This document shows positions 685 to 8,803 of a stretch of 64,000 nucleotides of DNA, in pieces. A program made the position numbers and the translations under genes. The number at the start of each line of letters is the position of its first letter. Positions within the stretch are counted from its first letter, which is position 1. The notes below the pieces were generated by a model that saw nothing but the letters and a program-made list of their open reading frames with translations, searched no databases and had not been told where the DNA came from. The DNA is from a bacterium (lineage in GTDB: Bacteria; Sysuimicrobiota; Sysuimicrobiia; Sysuimicrobiales; Segetimicrobiaceae): NCBI GenBank assembly GCA_035307765.1, contig DATGHU010000015.1, positions 1 to 64,000 on the forward strand, read 5' to 3'.

Positions 685-1836
685 ATGAATCCCGCACGAG
701 GACCGCGAACAGCATCCGAGACCGGCGCATCGGACAATGTGAGCCCGCCGGGGGCGGCCGCGATCCCGCATCTATTCCGCCCGCTCCGCCTCCGCGGGGT
801 GACGCTGCGGAATCGCCTCGTGGTGTCGCCGATGTGCCAGTACTCGTGCGAGGCGCGCGACGGACTGGCCACCTCCTGGCACCTCGTCCACCTCGGGACG
901 CGTGCGGTGGGGGGAGCGGGGCTCGTGTTCGCCGAGGCGACGGCGGTGACGCCGGAAGGGCGCATCTCCCCTCAGGACCTTGGGATCTGGTCCGACGCGC
1001 ACGCCGAGGTGCTGGCGCCCATCGCCGCGTTCGTCAAGGCTCAAGGCGCGGCGGCCGGCATCCAGCTCGCCCACGCCGGCCGCAAGGCCAGCACGTCGAG
1101 ACCGTGGGAAGGGTCGCGGGGACTCAGCGATGCGGAGGGGGGATGGGTGCCGGTCGGGCCCAGCCCGATCCCCTTCAGCGAGACCTACCGCACCCCGCGG
1201 GAGATGACGGGGCAGGACATCGCCGCGGTCGTCCGGGCATTCGCGGAGGCGGCGGACCGGGCTCGACGTGCGGGGTTTGACGTCCTGGAGATCCACGCGG
1301 CGCACGGGTATCTGCTCCACGAGTTTCTCTCGCCGCTGGCGAACCGCCGCACCGACGGGTACGGAGGGTCGTTCGAGCATCGCGGCCGCCTCCTGATGGA
1401 GGTGGTGGACGCCGTCAGGGCTTCCTGGCCGGAGGGGAACCCCCTTTGCGTTCGCCTCTCCGCAACGGATTGGGTCCCCGGGGGGTGGGACGCCGACGAC
1501 AGCATCCGCCTGTCCGCGGAACTCGCCCGGCATGGGGTTGACGTGGTCGATTGCTCGAGCGGCGGCACCTCCCCCGCGCAGCAGGTGCCCCTTGGCCCCG
1601 GATATCAGGTGCCCTTCGCCGAACGGATCCGCCGGGAGGCGTCCGTGCTGACGATGGCCGTGGGGCTGATCACCACCGCCGAGCAGGCCGAGCGAATCGT
1701 GGCCAAGGGGCAGGCCGATCTCGTCGCCATGGCCCGCGAGTTCCTCCGCCACCCCTACGCCGCCCTGCACGCGGCGGCGACGCTGGGGAGCCCGGACGCG
1801 GCGGCCTGGCCGGCACAGTACCTCCGCGCCCGGTGA
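685..1836 (+). CDS. NADH:flavin oxidoreductase, Old Yellow Enzyme family (YqjM-like)
   Basis: This 383-residue FMN-dependent ene-reductase would use NAD(P)H to reduce activated C=C bonds. The TIM-barrel family is recognised from SPMCQYS (Cys51 and Tyr53, the thermophilic-like/YqjM subclass signature contacting FMN), HAAHGYLLHEF (His204 and His207, substrate-anion binding) and NRRTDGYGGSFEHR. The ATG at 685 follows a GGGGAGGGGG ribosome site; the open frame extends upstream but without family similarity. The first 27 residues are an extra low-complexity tail. The gene converges with the small membrane-protein gene downstream and is transcribed alone. The physiological substrate is unknown. Confidence 0.9.
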   Translation: MNPARGPRTASETGASDNVSPPGAAAIPHLFRPLRLRGVTLRNRLVVSPMCQYSCEARDGLATSWHLVHLGTRAVGGAGLVFAEATAVTPEGRISPQDLGIWSDAHAEVLAPIAAFVKAQGAAAGIQLAHAGRKASTSRPWEGSRGLSDAEGGWVPVGPSPIPFSETYRTPREMTGQDIAAVVRAFAEAADRARRAGFDVLEIHAAHGYLLHEFLSPLANRRTDGYGGSFEHRGRLLMEVVDAVRASWPEGNPLCVRLSATDWVPGGWDADDSIRLSAELARHGVDVVDCSSGGTSPAQQVPLGPGYQVPFAERIRREASVLTMAVGLITTAEQAERIVAKGQADLVAMAREFLRHPYAALHAAATLGSPDAAAWPAQYLRAR

Positions 1837-1844
1837 CCCGAGCG

Positions 1845-2381
1845 CTACGGGGGGGAGAAGGGGGTCCGCCCGGGGCGTCCCCGCAGTCCGATGACCGCGC
1901 GCCCGCCGAGTGCGGCGATGGGGATGAGCAGGCCGGTCACGACCAGCAGATCCCCCGGCTGATCGTGGCGGGAGACCTCCAGGACCAGGATCAGGCCCGC
2001 GAGCACGAGCAGAGCGAGCGAGAGCCCTCTGTGGAACCGGCCGATCTCCGACTCGAGCCACGACTCCAGGTGGTGTTCCAGGACCCGCCCGTTCGCGGAG
2101 TCGGTGCAGAGCGGCTTCACCGGGCACCGGTTGCACGCGTGCGCCGGCGCGCGGTACCGGACGACGCGGCGGGCATGATCGATGCCCTGGCGGTAGAGAT
2201 GCTCCCCCTGCGGGCACTCCCAGGCATCCAGACTCCGCCGGTGGGTGAACCCGGCCGCGTGGTAGCGATCGGCGCGCCGAAACGCGAACCGCGCGACCGT
2301 TTCCAGGCCGCCGGCGATGCCCACGAGCAGCACCGCGTATCCGGCCACGAGTAACGCCTCCAGGTGCACGCCCGCGAGCAT
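1845..2381 (-). CDS. Small membrane protein with a transposase-like four-Cys segment, coupled to norZ
   Basis: This 178-residue protein has an N-terminal hydrophobic segment (about 6-28) and two more near the C-terminus (about 118-136 and 144-166). Between them lies a soluble region with WECPQGEHL (Cys56) and ACNRCPVKPLC (Cys83, Cys86, Cys92). That CPxG...YRA...CxxCPxKxxC pattern resembles the Cys-rich segment of IS1182-type DDE transposases, yet no catalytic DDE region is present and the segment is embedded between membrane helices. The ATG lies 4 nt after the norZ stop with no clear ribosome site, which suggests translational coupling. A metal-binding or accessory role for NO reductase is inference; no function is assigned. 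Confidence 0.6.
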   Translation of the reverse strand: MLAGVHLEALLVAGYAVLLVGIAGGLETVARFAFRRADRYHAAGFTHRRSLDAWECPQGEHLYRQGIDHARRVVRYRAPAHACNRCPVKPLCTDSANGRVLEHHLESWLESEIGRFHRGLSLALLVLAGLILVLEVSRHDQPGDLLVVTGLLIPIAALGGRAVIGLRGRPGRTPFSPP

Positions 2382-2385
2382 CGTC

Positions 2386-4671
2386 TCAGGTCTGCGGGGA
2401 TTCCGCGCGTTCCACGAACAGCACCGGCTGCGGTTCCTCCATCACGGCGGCGGGGGGCATGTGGCGTACCCCCAGCCAGCTGAGGTAAACGATGGGCAGC
2501 GTGCCCCCGGCAATGAAGACCATATCCCCCGGGAACCGCAGCCACTCGATCAGCGCGTTCGTTGTGTTGGTGAGGAACTTGAGCGATCGGGCGTCGAAAT
2601 AGCCGTGGCTCACCGAGTAGTACAGTTGCAGGATGCCGAGCGGGAAGAGCGTCGCGAAGACCATCCACGCCAGGCCGAGGTTGAGCGACCAGAAACTGAT
2701 CTGCGCCGCGCGGTCCGACCAGCGGGACTCGGGAACCATGTACCGCAGGCAGAACAGGGCCAGGGCCACGGCGAGCATCCCGTACACCCCCATCATGGCG
2801 GCGTGGGCGTGATTGGCGGTGAGCGCCGTGCCGATTTCATAGTAGGAGACGATGGGGAGGTTGATCAGGAACCCGAAGACGCCCGCGCCGAGGAAATTCC
2901 AGAACCCGACGGCCGCGAGGAACATCACCGCCCAGAAGTGCGGGAACGGGGTGGGGGACTGGGATCCCTGACGGACCCCCAACTGGAGGAAGCTCCAGGC
3001 GTCGAGGGTGAGGAAGGTCAGCGGGATCACCTCGGCGGCGGAGAAGAACGCGCCCAGGGCCATGTGCACCGCGGGTTCGCCGGAGAAGTAGACGTGGTGC
3101 ATCGTGCCGATGATCCCGCCCGCGGAGTACAGCAGGATATCGAGGTAGCACATCGTCAGGGCCACCCGTTCGTGGACCACGCCGAGGAGGACGAAGAGGT
3201 AGGCGACCATGATCGTGGTGAAGAGCTCGAGGAAGTCCTCGACCCAGAGGTGGACGACCCAGAACCGCCAGAAATCGGTGGAGGTAAAGTGCGCGGAGGG
3301 CTGCGCCAGCAGGCCCACCGCGTAGAACGCGGGGAGCGACAGCGCGGAGAAGAAGAACAGCCACGGCATGTTCCCCAGGTGGTCCGATCGCAGGCGCCCC
3401 CGCAGCCCCCGGTAGAGGATCACCACCCAAAACCCCAAACCCAGGATCAGCAGGATCTGCCAGAAGCGCCCCAGATCCAGATACTCGAAGCCCTGATTGC
3501 CGAACCACTCCCAGTTCCGGTGGATCCACCCGTAGATCCCCGCGTACTCACCGGCAAGGCTGCCCGCCACGACGATCGCTAGCGCGGCGAGGAGGGCGTA
3601 GGCGAGGCGCTGCTGTCCGCGCGGCTCGTCGCCGGCGATCATCGGGACGAGGAAAATGCCGGCCGCCAGGTAAGAGATGGCGACCCAAAAGATGGAGAGC
3701 TGCAGGTGCCACGTCCTGGCCAGGTTGAACGGCAACACCCGGGCGAGATCGATCCCGAAAAACGTGGAGAGGTCGGCCCGATAGTGCTGGGTCGCCCCGC
3801 CCAGCACGGTCTGGAGCAGAAACAGCAGCGCCATCGTCAGGAAGAACCACGCGCAGGCGCGTTGGGAGGGGGTCAGCGCCACCGCGTCGGGGGCGCGGAA
3901 GGACAGGGGGTGCTGTTCCCGCCCGTGCCAGCCCAGGAAATTCCACCGGCCGAAGGCCGCGAGGAGGATGCCGATTCCCCCCAGCAGGACGATCAGCGAG
4001 AGCACGCTCCACACCAGCGTGTCGGCGGTCGGGTAGTTGTTGACGAGGGGCTCCGGGGGCCAGTTGTTGGTGTACGAGTACTGGTGCGCCGGCCGCAGGG
4101 CCGATGCCGCCCACGCCGACCACGCGAAGAACGCGGTGAGGCGCGTGATCGTCTGCGGATCGGTGATCGCCCGCGGGCGCAGCCCGGTGCGGGTGGTGGG
4201 GGCGGCAAAGAACTCCTGATAGTACCCCCGCAGCTCGTCGAACGCACGGGCCTGGGGCGTGGTGAACGCGAGCGTCCGGGTGGCGGCGTCGTACCGGTTG
4301 GTCTTGAAGTCGGTCGCGGTCAGCGTCCGGGCCTGGTCCGAGGCCACCCCTCCGTACTGATCGAGGACGATCAGCGCGGCGCGGTGCAGGTAGTCGGCGG
4401 TGTAGTCCGGTCCCAGGTACGCCCCGTGGCCGAAGATCGACCCGTACTCCATCAGGCCGTTGCGAAGAAAGGCCTCCTGCCCCAAGATGACGTCGGCGTC
4501 GGTGAAGAGGACGTGCCCGGCGGGATCGACGACCCGAGCCGGGATGGGGGGTTCGCCGGTGTATGTCCGGTACGCGAGCAGGCTCAGCACAAGAAAGCCG
4601 AACAGCATCACGAGAAGGACGGCCTGGATCCATCCGCTGGAGATGAGCAGGGGACGTTTCGCAGCGAGCAT
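2386..4671 (-). CDS. norZ: Quinol-dependent nitric oxide reductase (qNOR)
   Basis: This 761-residue membrane enzyme reduces 2 NO to N2O with electrons from quinol. An N-terminal helix and a periplasmic cytochrome-c-like but heme-less domain (about residues 40-210) precede the 12-helix heme-copper-oxidase-type core. Expected metal ligands are visible: His322 (RTWHLQ), His474 with Glu478 (VVHLWVED), the His525-His526 pair (TMHHVYFSGEP) and His621/His623 (NHAHAA). The length matches single-subunit qNOR and there is no separate norC. The start follows a GGAGGG ribosome site. No nitrite reductase is nearby, so NO detoxification is more likely than full denitrification. It heads a two-gene unit with the downstream Cys-cluster membrane protein. 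Confidence 0.95.
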   Translation of the reverse strand: MLAAKRPLLISSGWIQAVLLVMLFGFLVLSLLAYRTYTGEPPIPARVVDPAGHVLFTDADVILGQEAFLRNGLMEYGSIFGHGAYLGPDYTADYLHRAALIVLDQYGGVASDQARTLTATDFKTNRYDAATRTLAFTTPQARAFDELRGYYQEFFAAPTTRTGLRPRAITDPQTITRLTAFFAWSAWAASALRPAHQYSYTNNWPPEPLVNNYPTADTLVWSVLSLIVLLGGIGILLAAFGRWNFLGWHGREQHPLSFRAPDAVALTPSQRACAWFFLTMALLFLLQTVLGGATQHYRADLSTFFGIDLARVLPFNLARTWHLQLSIFWVAISYLAAGIFLVPMIAGDEPRGQQRLAYALLAALAIVVAGSLAGEYAGIYGWIHRNWEWFGNQGFEYLDLGRFWQILLILGLGFWVVILYRGLRGRLRSDHLGNMPWLFFFSALSLPAFYAVGLLAQPSAHFTSTDFWRFWVVHLWVEDFLELFTTIMVAYLFVLLGVVHERVALTMCYLDILLYSAGGIIGTMHHVYFSGEPAVHMALGAFFSAAEVIPLTFLTLDAWSFLQLGVRQGSQSPTPFPHFWAVMFLAAVGFWNFLGAGVFGFLINLPIVSYYEIGTALTANHAHAAMMGVYGMLAVALALFCLRYMVPESRWSDRAAQISFWSLNLGLAWMVFATLFPLGILQLYYSVSHGYFDARSLKFLTNTTNALIEWLRFPGDMVFIAGGTLPIVYLSWLGVRHMPPAAVMEEPQPVLFVERAESPQT

Positions 4672-4811
4672 TTGAACCCTCCACGAGGCGGCGACATAGG
4701 CTAATTCTCCGGGGGCGTGCCATCATCCCGCGCGCTTGTGGGGGGCGTGATCGCGGCCGGGATGGGATCGAGGTATGATAGGGGACAGGGAAGACTCCGA
4801 GAGGTGAAGCC

Positions 4812-5255
4812 GTGTCGCCCACGATCCATGCGCTCGTCGGTGCCGCGATCGGGAGGTTTGTCCGGCACCCCGGGGAGGCGCTCCTCGCCGGGATCGCCTC
4901 CCATTCGGTCCTGGACTGCCTGCCGCACAAGGACTCCCGTCATCCCGCCGTGCTCCTCCTTCACGCCTGCGGCGTGCTCGGCGTCGCGGCGGCGGCCCTC
5001 ACCGCGGGCGATTCCGCGGCGCTGGCAGGGGCGGTGGGGGGGGTGCTTCCCGATCTGGAGAACCTGCGCGAGAAGCCGCCCCACGACCGGATATTTCCGG
5101 GCCACCGCTTCCGCCACGACCGGTACCCGCTCGGGCCGAGCCTCGGCGCAGAGCTCCTGCTCGCGGCCGCCGCGGTGGTCGCCCTCGCCGCAACCCACCC
5201 CACCGCTGCCCCCGCGCCGCCCCATCGAAAAACCCTCCAAGGTGTGTTTAAATAG
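4812..5255 (+). CDS. Small conserved membrane-associated protein of unknown function
   Basis: This 147-residue protein starts at GTG 4812 behind an AGAGGTG ribosome site. The sequence SHSVLDCLPHKD (about residues 30-41) followed by hydrophobic stretches and an HRFRHDRYP segment (about 97-105) resembles small membrane-bound metal-dependent hydrolase-like proteins that carry an SHxxxDxxPH motif. It has two or three hydrophobic segments and a Pro/His-rich tail. A possible -10 (TATGAT, 4774-4779) lies upstream. It precedes hemE by 24 nt and may be co-transcribed with the heme genes. No function can be given. Confidence 0.6.
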   Translation: MSPTIHALVGAAIGRFVRHPGEALLAGIASHSVLDCLPHKDSRHPAVLLLHACGVLGVAAAALTAGDSAALAGAVGGVLPDLENLREKPPHDRIFPGHRFRHDRYPLGPSLGAELLLAAAAVVALAATHPTAAPAPPHRKTLQGVFK

Positions 5256-5279: not shown

Positions 5280-6377
5280 ATGCCCCACCAAGCGCTGGAC
5301 CCCGTCGTGCCCCGTGATCCGGGCGGCACTTCCGGACGGCCCGGATCTCGCGAGGGTTGGGCGTTTCTTCGCGCGTGCCGGCGAGAGCCCACCGCCTACA
5401 CTCCCGTCTGGCTGATGCGGCAGGCGGGCCGCTACCTGCCGGAGTACCGGGCGATCAGGGAGCGACTCGGCCTGCTCGAGCTCTGCAAGACGCCCGAGGC
5501 CGCGGCCGAGGTGACGGTTACGGCGGTCGACCGATTGAAGGTCGATGCGGCGATCATCTTCGCGGATATCCTGCTCGTCGTCGAGCCGCTCGGCCTGGGG
5601 CTGGAGTTCGTCGGCGGGGAAGGCCCGGTGATTCGGCACCCGGTTCGCACCCCCGCGGATGTCGGTCGGCTGCGGGGGGCGGATCCCGCGGAGAGCCTTG
5701 CCTTCGTGTTCGAGGCGGTCCGGCTGGCCCAGCGGGCGCTGGCCGGTCGTGTCCCGCTGATCGGGTTCGCCGGAGGTCCGTTTACCGTGGCGTCCTATCT
5801 CGTCGAGGGGCGTTCCTCGCGCGACTTCCTCGCCACGAAGACGCTGATGCATCATCACTCGGCCACGTGGGAGGCGCTGATGGACGCGCTCACCTCGCTC
5901 ACCATCGGGTACCTCAACGGGCAGATCGCGGCGGGGGCCGACGCCGTGCAACTCTTCGACAGCTGGATCGGATGCCTGTCGCCCGACGACTACCGCCGCT
6001 TCGTCCTCCCGCACGTTCGCCGGCTGATCGGCGGCGTGACCCCGGGGGTTCCGGTGATCCACTTCGGCACCGGGACGGCCGGCCTGCTCGAGCTGATGGG
6101 GGAGGCGGGGGGGGATGTGATCGGGGTGGACTGGCGCGTCGACTTGGGCGCGGCGTGGCGCCGCCTCGGTGGGGGGGTGGGAGTCCAGGGGAACCTGGAT
6201 CCCGCGCTGCTCTTGTCCGACCCGGACGACATCCGGCGCGGCGTGCGGGCGGTGCTCGGCAGCGCCGCCGGGCGGCCGGGGCACATCTTCAATCTGGGGC
6301 ACGGTGTCCTCCCGAACACGCCCTGGCAGCACGCGGCGGCGATGGTGGAATTCGTGCACGAGGAGAGCCGGCGCTGA
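5280..6377 (+). CDS. hemE: Uroporphyrinogen decarboxylase
   Basis: HemE decarboxylates the four acetate side chains of uroporphyrinogen III to give coproporphyrinogen III in the cytoplasm. The 365-residue protein has the signature PVWLMRQAGRYLPEY (Arg47 and Arg51 bind substrate carboxylates) and FADIL (Asp96, the catalytic-site aspartate). The ATG is preceded by GAGGAGAACG. About 22 N-terminal residues precede the conserved domain. It begins a three-gene unit hemE-hemH-hemY with 1-nt spacing and then an overlap, consistent with one transcript for the late heme steps. Confidence 0.96.
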   Translation: MPHQALDPVVPRDPGGTSGRPGSREGWAFLRACRREPTAYTPVWLMRQAGRYLPEYRAIRERLGLLELCKTPEAAAEVTVTAVDRLKVDAAIIFADILLVVEPLGLGLEFVGGEGPVIRHPVRTPADVGRLRGADPAESLAFVFEAVRLAQRALAGRVPLIGFAGGPFTVASYLVEGRSSRDFLATKTLMHHHSATWEALMDALTSLTIGYLNGQIAAGADAVQLFDSWIGCLSPDDYRRFVLPHVRRLIGGVTPGVPVIHFGTGTAGLLELMGEAGGDVIGVDWRVDLGAAWRRLGGGVGVQGNLDPALLLSDPDDIRRGVRAVLGSAAGRPGHIFNLGHGVLPNTPWQHAAAMVEFVHEESRR

Positions 6378-6378
6378 G

Positions 6379-7308
6379 ATGGCGACACCCTACGGGGCGG
6401 TCTTGCTGATCGCGTTCGGCGGGCCGGATCGGATGGCCGACGTCCGGCCGTTCCTCGCCAACGTCCTGCGCGGCCGCCGGGTCCCCCCGGAGCGGGTCGA
6501 GGAGGTCGTGCACCACTACGAGATGTTTGACGGCCACTCGCCGCTCGCCGAGCACACCGTCCGGCAGGCCGAGGCCCTGCGGGCGGATCTGGACGCCCAC
6601 GGCCCGCCGCTTCCGGTCTACGTCGGGATGCGGAATTGGACGCCCTACCTCCACGAGAGCCTGGCGCGGATGCGGGGGGACGGGATCCGCCGGGCGGTCG
6701 GCATCGTCATGGCCGCTCACCGCAGCTACTCCAGTTGGGAGCAGTACCACGAGAACGTCGCGGAGGCGCGCGCCCAACTCGGCCCCGAGGCTCCCGAGAT
6801 CGACTACCTGGGGCCGTGGTTCGACCATCCGGGGTTCATCGAAGCTCAGGCCGACCGGGTCGCCGACGCGCTTCGGGCGATCCCGGCCGCGCAGCGTCCC
6901 GCGGCCCGGCTGATCTTCACGGCGCACAGCATCCCCGAGGCGATGGCCGCGGCGTCCCCGTACGTCACGCAGCTCGTCACCTCCGCCCGGCTGGTGGCGG
7001 GCAGGCTCAATCACCCCCGCTGGTCGGTGGCCTACCAGAGCCGGAGCGGCGATCCCCGGACCCCCTGGCTGGGGCCCGATGTGGCCGAGGTGATCCGCGG
7101 GCTGGGGGGAGCCGGGCCCGAGGTGGTGGTCGTGGTGCCGATCGGGTTCGTTTCCGATCACATCGAGGTGCTGTACGATCTGGATACCGAAGCCCGCGCC
7201 GAGGCGCGCCGGGCCGGGGTGGCGTTTCACCGGGCGGGCACCGTGATGGACCATCCGGCGTTCGTCCGGATGTTGGGGGATCTCGTCCGTGCCCGCGCCG
7301 CAGCCTGA
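6379..7308 (+). CDS. hemH: Ferrochelatase (coproporphyrin-type likely)
   Basis: HemH inserts Fe2+ into the porphyrin ring. The 309-residue soluble protein contains MAAHRSYSSWEQY, TAHSIPEAM (His183, metal delivery) and VSDHIEVLYDLD (Glu263), corresponding to the catalytic His and Glu of Bacillus ferrochelatase. It starts at ATG 6379, one base after the hemE stop, and its 3' end overlaps hemY by 20 nt. The hemE-hemH-hemY order and the compact size fit the coproporphyrin-dependent pathway of Gram-positive-type bacteria, which would also need HemQ/ChdC; none is in this window. Confidence 0.95.
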   Translation: MATPYGAVLLIAFGGPDRMADVRPFLANVLRGRRVPPERVEEVVHHYEMFDGHSPLAEHTVRQAEALRADLDAHGPPLPVYVGMRNWTPYLHESLARMRGDGIRRAVGIVMAAHRSYSSWEQYHENVAEARAQLGPEAPEIDYLGPWFDHPGFIEAQADRVADALRAIPAAQRPAARLIFTAHSIPEAMAAASPYVTQLVTSARLVAGRLNHPRWSVAYQSRSGDPRTPWLGPDVAEVIRGLGGAGPEVVVVVPIGFVSDHIEVLYDLDTEARAEARRAGVAFHRAGTVMDHPAFVRMLGDLVRARAAA

Positions 7309-8803
7309 GGACGTCCGCCCGCGCCCGATGCGGTCGAGGGCGGTCCGGATCGTGGTCGTGGGCGGCGGGATCGCCGGGCTCGCGGCCGCCCACCGCCTGG
7401 TCGAACTGGCCGCGGCCCAGCAGGTCCCGCTGGATCTCATCCTGCTCGAGGCGCGGGATCGGCTCGGGGGAATCATCGCCACCGAGCGGATCGAGGATTT
7501 CCTCGTCGAGGGCGGCCCGGACTCGTTTCTGGCCGAGAAGCCTTGGGCGAGCGCCTTGTGCGAGCGCCTCGGGATCGCGGACCACCTGATCCCGACCCGC
7601 GACACGCACCGGCGGACCTTCGTGGTCGACCGCGGGCGTCTCGTTCCGCTCCCCGACGGGTTTCTCGTCCTGGGCCCGAGCCGGCTGATCCCGGCGTGGC
7701 GGTCCCCCCTCCTGAGCTGGCGGGGGAAGGCGCGGATGACGATGGAACTCCTGCTCCCGCGCGGCCGGGTGGATGGCGATGAGAGCGTGGGCGGGTTCGT
7801 GACGCGCCGGTTCGGACGGGAGGTGCTCGACCGCGTGGTGCAGCCGCTGGTCAGCGGGATCTACGGGGCGGACCCCTCGACCGTCAGCCTGGCGGCGACG
7901 ATGCCCCGGTTCATGGAGATGGAGCGCCGCTACCGCAGCATCACGTGGGCGCTTGCGCGGTCGAGGGCCCGGCGCCGGGGGGCGGCCGGAAGCGGTCCGC
8001 GCTGGAACCTGTTCGTCACGCCGGCGGAGGGGATGGAGGCGCTTGTGACGTGCCTTGCGCGACGGCTCCCCCCGGCGTCGCTGCGGCTCAGACGCCGGGT
8101 CACCGCGGTCGGGCAATCCGCCGGTCCCCACCCGTGGCGCGTCGACCTCGTCGATGGAACCGCGATTATGTCTGACGCCGTGATCCTCGCCACCCCCGCG
8201 CCCCGCACGGCGCGCCTCGTTTCGTCGGTCGATCCGGAGCTCGGCCGGCTCCTTGAGGCGGTGCCGTACGCGTCGTCCGCGACCGTGACCCTGGCGTACC
8301 GGCGGACCGACCTCCGGCACCCCTTGGACGGGTTTGGGTTCGTGGTCCCGCAGACCGAGGGGCGTCCCGTTCTGGCGTGCACGTTCTCGAGCGTGAAGTA
8401 CCCGGGGCGCGCCCCGGACGACCACGTGCTGCTGCGCGCGTTCATGGGCGGGGCCGCCCACCGGGGGCTGCTCGATCGCGATGACGAGTCGCTGGTGGCG
8501 TCGGCCGCCCAGGAGTTTGCCGCGCTGCTGGGGGTCCACGCCCCCCCGCGTCTCGCGCGGGTGCACCGCCACGCGGCGGCGATGCCGCACTATTTGGTCG
8601 GCCACGCCGAGCGCGTCGCCGCGATGCGGGCGCATGCGGCCCGCTACCCCGGTTTGGCTCTGGCAGGCAATGCCTACGAGGGGATCGGGATCCCCGACTG
8701 CATCCACTCGGGGGAGGTGGCGGCGGAACAGGTGATGGCCGCGGCTGCCGGCCGTCCCGACAAGGCTCCGGCCCCGGCGTTCAGGGTGTCGCCGATCCGC
8801 TGA
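7289..8803 (+). CDS. hemY: Protoporphyrinogen/coproporphyrinogen III oxidase (HemY/CgoX)
   Basis: This 504-residue FAD enzyme oxidises a porphyrinogen to the porphyrin using O2. A dinucleotide-binding motif VVVGGGIAGLAAAHRL sits at about residues 22-37, followed by the LLEARDRLGG segment and, at the C-terminus, the AGNAYEGIGIPDCI motif that closes the FAD site. GTG 7289 lies inside hemH (20-nt overlap); ATG 7328 is an alternative, 13 codons downstream. There is no membrane anchor, as in the soluble Gram-positive type. In a coproporphyrin pathway it would act before HemH. Confidence 0.93.
   Translation: MPAPQPEDVRPRPMRSRAVRIVVVGGGIAGLAAAHRLVELAAAQQVPLDLILLEARDRLGGIIATERIEDFLVEGGPDSFLAEKPWASALCERLGIADHLIPTRDTHRRTFVVDRGRLVPLPDGFLVLGPSRLIPAWRSPLLSWRGKARMTMELLLPRGRVDGDESVGGFVTRRFGREVLDRVVQPLVSGIYGADPSTVSLAATMPRFMEMERRYRSITWALARSRARRRGAAGSGPRWNLFVTPAEGMEALVTCLARRLPPASLRLRRRVTAVGQSAGPHPWRVDLVDGTAIMSDAVILATPAPRTARLVSSVDPELGRLLEAVPYASSATVTLAYRRTDLRHPLDGFGFVVPQTEGRPVLACTFSSVKYPGRAPDDHVLLRAFMGGAAHRGLLDRDDESLVASAAQEFAALLGVHAPPRLARVHRHAAAMPHYLVGHAERVAAMRAHAARYPGLALAGNAYEGIGIPDCIHSGEVAAEQVMAAAAGRPDKAPAPAFRVSPIR

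What the first reader, a model, noticed from the sequence alone, without database searches (positions are those of the whole stretch)
1845..4671. Membrane protein with a transposase-type Cys cluster coupled to NO reductase
The 178-residue protein begins 4 nt after the qNOR stop and carries CPxG...CxxCPxKxxC between membrane helices. This pattern is otherwise typical of IS1182-type transposases. A domesticated transposase fragment serving as a metal-binding or assembly factor for qNOR would be new.
Basis: partly seen in the sequence, partly recalled or inferred. Interest (0 to 1): 0.58.

Follow-up and report, generated by a model that had tools for sequence, protein, structure and literature searches.

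The report
Transposase-derived cysteine module beside NO reductase
A small membrane protein, encoded directly behind one group of bacterial nitric-oxide-detoxifying enzymes, carries a metal-binding-type module shared with jumping-gene enzymes; it looks like an undescribed partner of that enzyme, but its job has not been tested.

Summary
A 178-aa gene starts 4 nt after the qNOR stop. It encodes three predicted helices with a Cys4 domain between the first two. The Cys domain is homologous to the Cys insert of IS1182 transposases: profile matches reach 1e-17, and with every Cys masked 31 of 60 transposase frames still match, against 0 of 1200 shuffles. The catalytic transposase parts are absent.

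ORF-led searches found 16 Cys-bearing homologues. In 14 a qNOR lies directly upstream (-4 to +12 nt); one contig starts inside the gene, and one (G373) has a start-less copy without qNOR. In qNOR-led searches, 13 of 15 qNORs at least 60% identical to the window's are followed by the gene (11 with, 2 without the Cys domain), against 0 of 6 more distant qNORs examined. On the qNOR tree the gene marks one group. The Cys-less homologues show that the Cys domain is a module in a membrane protein.

I read it as a dedicated qNOR partner, most likely an assembly or stability factor, whose Cys module came from IS1182 transposases. Partnership is well supported; the biochemical role and the metal are inferred. 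Ten full-text searches listed no description of it.

The parts
2386..4671 (-). [quoted passage not shown]
   Evidence: PF22085 4.2e-51, PF00115 2.8e-50; solved qNORs match over residues 19-751
1845..2381 (-). qNOR-partner gene, 178-aa three-helix membrane protein with a Cys4 module
2274..2363 (-). transmembrane helix 1 (residues 7-36)
   Evidence: AF2 helix 7-40; hydropathy peak 5-23
2070..2249 (-). Cys module (residues 45-104), homologous to the Cys insert of IS1182 transposases
   Evidence: PF13751 residues 56-106 to profile 2-56/125; NF033551 residues 36-111 to 349-423/488
2214..2216 (-). Cys56 codon (CPxG)
   Evidence: Cys in 14 of 14 Cys-bearing homologues
2133..2135 (-). Cys83 codon
   Evidence: Cys in 14 of 14
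2124..2126 (-). Cys86 codon
   Evidence: Cys in 14 of 14
2106..2108 (-). Cys92 codon
   Evidence: Cys in 14 of 14
2022..2063 (-). interface motif W108..(S/T)E..RFHRG (residues 107-120), kept also in Cys-less homologues
   Evidence: most conserved region, mean pairwise identity 62.6% over 13 proteins; F116 in 16 of 16, W108 in 15 of 16
1968..2021 (-). transmembrane helix 2 (residues 121-138)
1884..1958 (-). transmembrane helix 3 (residues 142-166)

Best explanation
The gene encodes a dedicated accessory membrane protein of one qNOR clade. SHOWN by sequence: it follows qNOR with overlapping or nearly overlapping ends, tracks one qNOR group in several phyla, and consists of a three-helix core with a conserved W..(S/T)E..RFHRG motif plus a Cys4 module that is homologous to the Cys insert of IS1182 transposases and is absent from some homologues. 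INFERRED: the Cys module faces the cytoplasm (the loop between helices 1 and 2 is Arg/Lys-rich), its four Cys bind one metal site (zinc or an iron-sulfur cluster), and the core with its interface motif docks on qNOR as it is made. Most likely role: assembly or stability of the enzyme (metallation, haem retention or folding), as other small membrane proteins do for haem-copper oxidases. The module most likely came once from an IS1182 transposase and was lost at least once.
For: 14 of 16 Cys-bearing homologues sit directly behind qNOR, -4 to +12 nt, five with ATGA/GTGA overlaps. qNOR-led: 13 of 15 qNORs at >=60% identity have the gene, 0 of 6 below. The qNOR tree puts all 16 gene-bearing qNORs in one group (support 82/99, one change), and the ORF tree recovers the same small groups. 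IS1182 homology with all Cys masked: 31 of 60 frames at E<=1e-3, 0 of 1200 shuffles (frames preselected with the unmasked profile). The 14 partner Cys domains form one clade against 45 transposase domains (100/99). The core is real without the Cys domain: Cys-less proteins score 42-47 bits, best of 4000 shuffles 12.1. Context in some loci is denitrification or NO stress: a nirK-like gene, FeS_assembly_P and hemerythrin genes in G007; Rrf2 and an annotated truncated haemoglobin in Streptomyces.
Against: Two qNORs at 65% identity (G314, G107) have no such gene downstream, and characterised qNORs are said to need no extra gene for FeB insertion and activity (PMC9976466, passages). Two homologues lack the Cys domain, so it cannot be universally required. 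No direct evidence for metal binding, topology, interaction or phenotype; the structure models are of middling confidence (pLDDT 76 and 74) and gave no convincing solved relative. G373 carries a start-less copy without qNOR on its contig.
Confidence: 0.5

Rival explanations
1. A redox or NO sensor/regulatory subunit: the four Cys hold an iron-sulfur cluster (recalled: the C...CxxCx5C spacing resembles the 4Fe-4S motifs of AddB/Cas4 and SPASM proteins) whose reaction with NO or redox state changes qNOR activity, electron entry or turnover.
For: Exact CxxCx5C spacing with a distant fourth Cys in 14 of 14; a weak match to the radical-SAM maturase SbtM, E 0.33; Fe-S assembly and hemerythrin genes nearby in G007.
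Against: The same spacing occurs in IS1182 transposases, where no cluster is known to me; Cys-less homologues exist; no single regulator family is adjacent in the loci examined.
Confidence: 0.25
2. A passenger: an IS1182 fragment fused to a small membrane ORF that travels with the qNOR cassette and has no role.
For: The window's protein passes the transposase Pfam cut-off, though barely (25.7 v 25.1); broken or partial copies exist.
Against: Kept in several phyla with all four Cys and the interface motif conserved and dN/dS 0.15-0.47; close spacing to qNOR in 16 of 16 cassettes (for 15, for Streptomyces).
Confidence: 0.07
3. A membrane-tethered nucleic-acid- or protein-binding regulator: the module keeps the (unknown) binding role it has in the transposase and controls expression of the nor genes.
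For: Homology to a transposase domain.
Against: No DNA-binding function of that insert is known to me, and none was listed; the gene lies downstream of its supposed target in the same transcription direction; membrane-bound.
Confidence: 0.08

Closest known systems
IS1182-family transposases (NF033551; PF13751 DDE_Tnp_1_6)
   Same: Residues 45-104 share F.Y...D.(W/Y).CP.G..L......R..YRA....CN.CP.K..CT....GR.I with the Cys insert of full-length transposases
   Different: No DUF772, no DDE_Tnp_1, PF13751 only positions 2-56 of 125; three membrane helices; conserved behind qNOR
Accessory proteins of cNOR: NorQ, NorD (and small membrane NorE/NorF, recalled)
   Same: Encoded with the reductase; a role in cofactor insertion is shown for NorQD (PMC9976466, passages)
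   Different: No AAA+ or VWA domain match; belongs to qNOR, for which that paper says no helper is needed
Characterised qNOR (NorZ), e.g. Alcaligenes xylosoxidans
   Same: The neighbouring enzyme matches solved qNORs along nearly its whole length
   Different: Described as a single-subunit enzyme (PMC10256718, passages) needing no extra gene (PMC9976466, passages)

Membership tests
IS1182 transposase | Whole-protein score over NCBIfam NF033551 cut-off (270 bits) | tested here: not met
   35.3 bits; six reference transposases 258-359 bits
IS1182 transposase | N-terminal DUF772 and DDE_Tnp_1 catalytic core | tested here: not met
   absent at E<=1 in the window's protein; present over both cut-offs in five of six reference transposases, DUF772 just under it in L097
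IS1182 transposase | Cys insert CPxG...CxxCPxxxxC (residues 45-104) | tested here: met
IS1182 transposase | Terminal inverted repeats around the gene | tested here: inconclusive
   three imperfect inverted pairs of 15-25 nt in window 1500-2700; the only one with arms on both sides of most of the gene (19 nt, 79%) has both arms inside coding sequence; no chance control
PF13751 DDE_Tnp_1_6 domain | Gathering score 25.1 and full-length domain | tested here: inconclusive
   window 25.7 bits but only profile 2-56 of 125; four other members 19.8-24.5, below cut-off
qNOR (neighbouring gene) | NorB cytochrome-c-like domain fused to the haem-copper core | tested here: met
   PF22085 and PF00115 far over cut-offs
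Zinc- or iron-sulfur-binding Cys4 protein | Four invariant Cys | tested here: met
   14 of 14 Cys-bearing homologues
Zinc- or iron-sulfur-binding Cys4 protein | Bound metal | not testable with these tools
   needs purified protein
NorQ/NorD-type NOR chaperone | MoxR AAA+ or VWA domain | tested here: not met
   no such match in Pfam or NCBIfam at E<=1

The most novel reading that the evidence does not exclude
A transposase's non-catalytic Cys module was captured by a membrane protein and turned into a cytoplasmic metal (perhaps iron-sulfur) domain of a previously unknown qNOR subunit that matures or gates NO reduction: a bacterial transposase domain put to use in respiration, away from DNA.
Probability: 0.35. 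Interest if true: 0.78.

Novelty: new variant of a known kind. Interest (0 to 1): 0.6.

Why it matters
qNOR is regarded as a one-gene enzyme. A clade-wide, closely coupled partner gene gives a direct test of whether some qNORs need help to be assembled or controlled, which bears on NO and N2O turnover by uncultured bacteria. It is also a clear case of a transposase module found in a membrane protein of metabolism, and the partner risks being filed as 'transposase' because the window's copy passes the PF13751 cut-off.

Tried and rejected
Chance Cys spacing: rejected, because homology survives masking of all Cys. Decayed local transposase: rejected; the host genome's own IS1182-like transposase matches the profile at 35-341 and 424-487 with 15 nt between, so it lacks the Cys module, and the best-matching modules come from transposases in genomes of other phyla searched. 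Docking peptide in the qNOR C-terminal tail (LFTE-like): rejected as a partner signal, because G488 and G580, which have no partner gene, carry it too. FNR-type box upstream of qNOR: none at window 4672-4811. Structure: no solved-structure sequence match for the ORF; Foldseek gave nothing at E<=0.001 for the full model or the Cys domain; VIA-align gave only generic helix bundles (best Z 12.0, 95 residues, rmsd 2.1), uninformative; an unlisted fold is not excluded. Phages and viral contigs: no relative. Plasmids with the window's protein: two weak matches, one annotated as a transposase. G654 hit: an unrelated region on reading. Literature: ten searches listed no paper on a qNOR partner or on an IS1182-derived membrane protein; only open-licence PMC papers are searched. 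Passages were read of PMC8756737, PMC9976466, PMC10256718, PMC6349771 and PMC11388526; the others were seen as listings only.

Full report
OBSERVATION. The window has a 761-aa qNOR gene at 2386-4671 (-) and, 4 nt behind its stop, a 178-aa gene at 1845-2381 (-). The qNOR matches PF22085 (4.2e-51) and PF00115 (2.8e-50), and its best solved-structure sequence matches are qNORs. The 178-aa protein has three hydrophobic helices and, between the first two, CPQG...CNRCPVKPLC.

HOMOLOGY TO TRANSPOSASES. Residues 56-106 match PF13751 (1.5e-5, 25.7 bits against a cut-off of 25.1) at profile positions 2-56 of 125. Residues 36-111 match NF033551 (IS1182 transposase) at 349-423 of 488, 35.3 bits against a cut-off of 270. 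A profile of seven homologues also matches IS1182-type frames, nearly all only within about positions 30-110, with E-values down to 2e-17. Six of the best were checked: all have NF033551 as top family, five over its cut-off, one at 258 bits, and carry DUF772, PF13751 and DDE_Tnp_1. To test the 'Cys spacing only' objection, all Cys were masked in both the profile and 60 transposase-like frames. Still 31 of 60 matched at E<=1e-3 and 17 at E<=1e-6, while 0 of 1200 shuffled frames did. Caveat: these frames had been chosen with the unmasked profile. The catalytic parts of the transposase are missing from the membrane protein.

WHERE HOMOLOGUES LIE, ORF FIRST. A scan of GTDB genome contigs gave six loci, and searches of 61, 43, 396, 350 and 327 genomes added more (in the last three only 8 to 10 candidates per genome were scored, so members can have been missed). 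In total 16 Cys-bearing homologues: G000, G007, G010, G061, G062, G063, G064, G411, G270, G248, G389, G449, G456, G1003, G373, G427. In the first 14 the gene lies directly behind a qNOR, from a 4-nt overlap to 12 nt apart, with ATGA or GTGA overlaps in five (G010, G064, G411, G389, G456). G427's contig begins inside the gene. G373 is a 5-kb contig whose copy lacks its first 50 or so residues and any start codon, with no qNOR; neither genome showed a qNOR at E<=1e-60. G248's copy loses its homology after the start of helix 2. Record titles name Bacillota, Acidobacteria, Proteobacteria and Solirubrobacterales.

WHERE HOMOLOGUES LIE, qNOR FIRST. Own phylum, 43 genomes: PF22085 in six; G000, G007, G010 have the gene, G022, G026, G014 (33-36% identity) do not. 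Phylum of G064, 396 genomes: nine qNORs at 60-70% identity; seven have the gene, G314 and G107 do not. Phylum of G063, 335 genomes: four; G063 has the gene, G532 a Cys-less form, G488 and G580 (57-58%) none. Plasmids: of 75 records with a match I examined the downstream region of two: Streptomyces sp. NBC_00271 (66.6%) has a Cys-less form, Sphingobium sp. TKS (47%) none. Together, of 15 qNORs at >=60% identity, 11 are followed by the Cys form, 2 by the Cys-less form and 2 by neither; of 6 below 60%, none. Leaving out the seeds G000, G063 and G064: 8, 2 and 2 of 12 (some of these, too, were already known from the ORF-led searches). G203 and G197 and the other 73 plasmid records were not examined.

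THE CYS DOMAIN IS A MODULE. G532 (121 aa) and Streptomyces NBC_00271 (129 aa, 4-nt overlap with qNOR, annotated 'hypothetical protein') keep helix 1, the W-P-H-(S/A)-E-x-x-R-F motif and helices 2-3 but have only a short linker where the Cys domain would be. They score 42-47 bits against profiles of the 13 full members, while the best of 4000 shuffles (half of them segment-wise) scores 12.1. Two more Streptomyces plasmids hold decayed remnants: a qNOR tail of 32 residues followed by a broken Cys-less copy. In transposases the module is also optional: the host's own IS1182-like transposase, and several others of its phylum, match on both sides of the Cys region but not in it.

TREES. On the qNOR tree (23 rows) all 16 qNORs with the gene form one group, support 82/99, one change; G532 is sister to Cys-bearing G063 (98/97), so there the module was most simply lost, while the place of Streptomyces is open. 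The ORF tree recovers G061+G062, G064+G411, G270+G248, G389+G449+G456 and G000+G007+G010; the qNOR tree has the same groups; support on the ORF tree is weaker. On a Cys-domain tree the 14 partner domains are one clade (100/99) against 45 transposase domains; its place among them (66/85) and the midpoint root are weak, so the direction transposase-to-membrane protein is likely, not proven.

CONSTRAINT. All four Cys are kept in 14 of 14. Mean pairwise identity among 13 proteins: residues 107-120 62.6%, Cys domain 49.7%, helix 1 44.2%, helices 2-3 26.4%. dN/dS for six pairs is 0.15-0.47, with dS up to 1.9. The loop holding the Cys domain carries 11-17 Arg/Lys in all 14, while the N-terminus carries 0-1 and the loop between helices 2 and 3, where both were found, 0-2; this suggests a cytoplasmic Cys domain (in G062 and G248 hydropathy did not find all three helices).

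STRUCTURE. AlphaFold2 with seven sequences: pLDDT 76.2, pTM 0.58, helices 7-40, 112-138, 142-166 and a beta-rich Cys domain. The Cys domain alone: pLDDT 73.9. No convincing solved relative was found.

CONTEXT. G007: a nirK-like gene (TIGR02376, 189.6 bits, under its cut-off of 296.3), two FeS_assembly_P genes and a hemerythrin-DUF2249 gene downstream; a LuxR-type response regulator upstream. G010: a Crp-type regulator upstream, with a molybdoenzyme of the S/N-oxide reductase type and a delta-subunit-like gene beyond. G389 and G456: an SPFH/Band_7 gene follows. Streptomyces: an Rrf2 regulator and an annotated group III truncated haemoglobin upstream (the latter matched no Pfam family). In the window the next gene on the other side is a divergent ORF at 4812-5255 with no Pfam match.

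WHAT IT PROBABLY DOES. The close coupling, clade-wide retention and conserved interface motif argue for a partner of qNOR. Published qNORs are described as single-subunit (PMC10256718, passages) and as needing no other gene for FeB insertion and activity (PMC9976466, passages). I therefore favour an accessory membrane protein for assembly or stability in this clade, with the Cys module as an added metal site. A sensor role with an iron-sulfur cluster is the main rival. The two gene-less relatives (G314, G107) lie outside the gene-bearing group on the tree, so they do not show that the gene is dispensable within it; the Cys-less forms do show that the Cys module is.

Noticed in passing
L007 (G061 contig C150) 4729-4896: A second, 57-residue C-terminal fragment of the partner gene with a stop lies about 2 kb behind the intact copy: a partial duplication.
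   Followed up: partly
L161 5001-5313, L162 5001-5300 (Streptomyces plasmids NBC_01450, NBC_01483): Decayed qNOR-partner cassettes: only a 32-residue qNOR tail and a broken Cys-less partner remain, in two related plasmids.
   Followed up: partly
G000:C6 13903-15153 (L023): The host's own IS1182-like transposase lacks the Cys module that its relatives elsewhere carry; several others of the phylum do too, so the insert is optional in the transposase.
   Followed up: partly
L143 7650-8486, L145 5090-5917: In two actinobacterial-type loci an SPFH/Band_7 (slipin-like) gene directly follows the partner gene, possibly a third member of the operon.
   Followed up: partly
window 5280-8803: Genes that by recalled sequence features look like haem-synthesis genes (hemE, hemH, hemY-like) run divergently from qNOR; not checked by a family search.
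   Followed up: no
qNOR C-terminal tails, e.g. window 2386-2440 (-): qNORs of this and the nearest gene-less groups mostly end in a conserved LFTE-like tail, not seen in the distant qNORs examined; it does not track the partner gene.
   Followed up: yes
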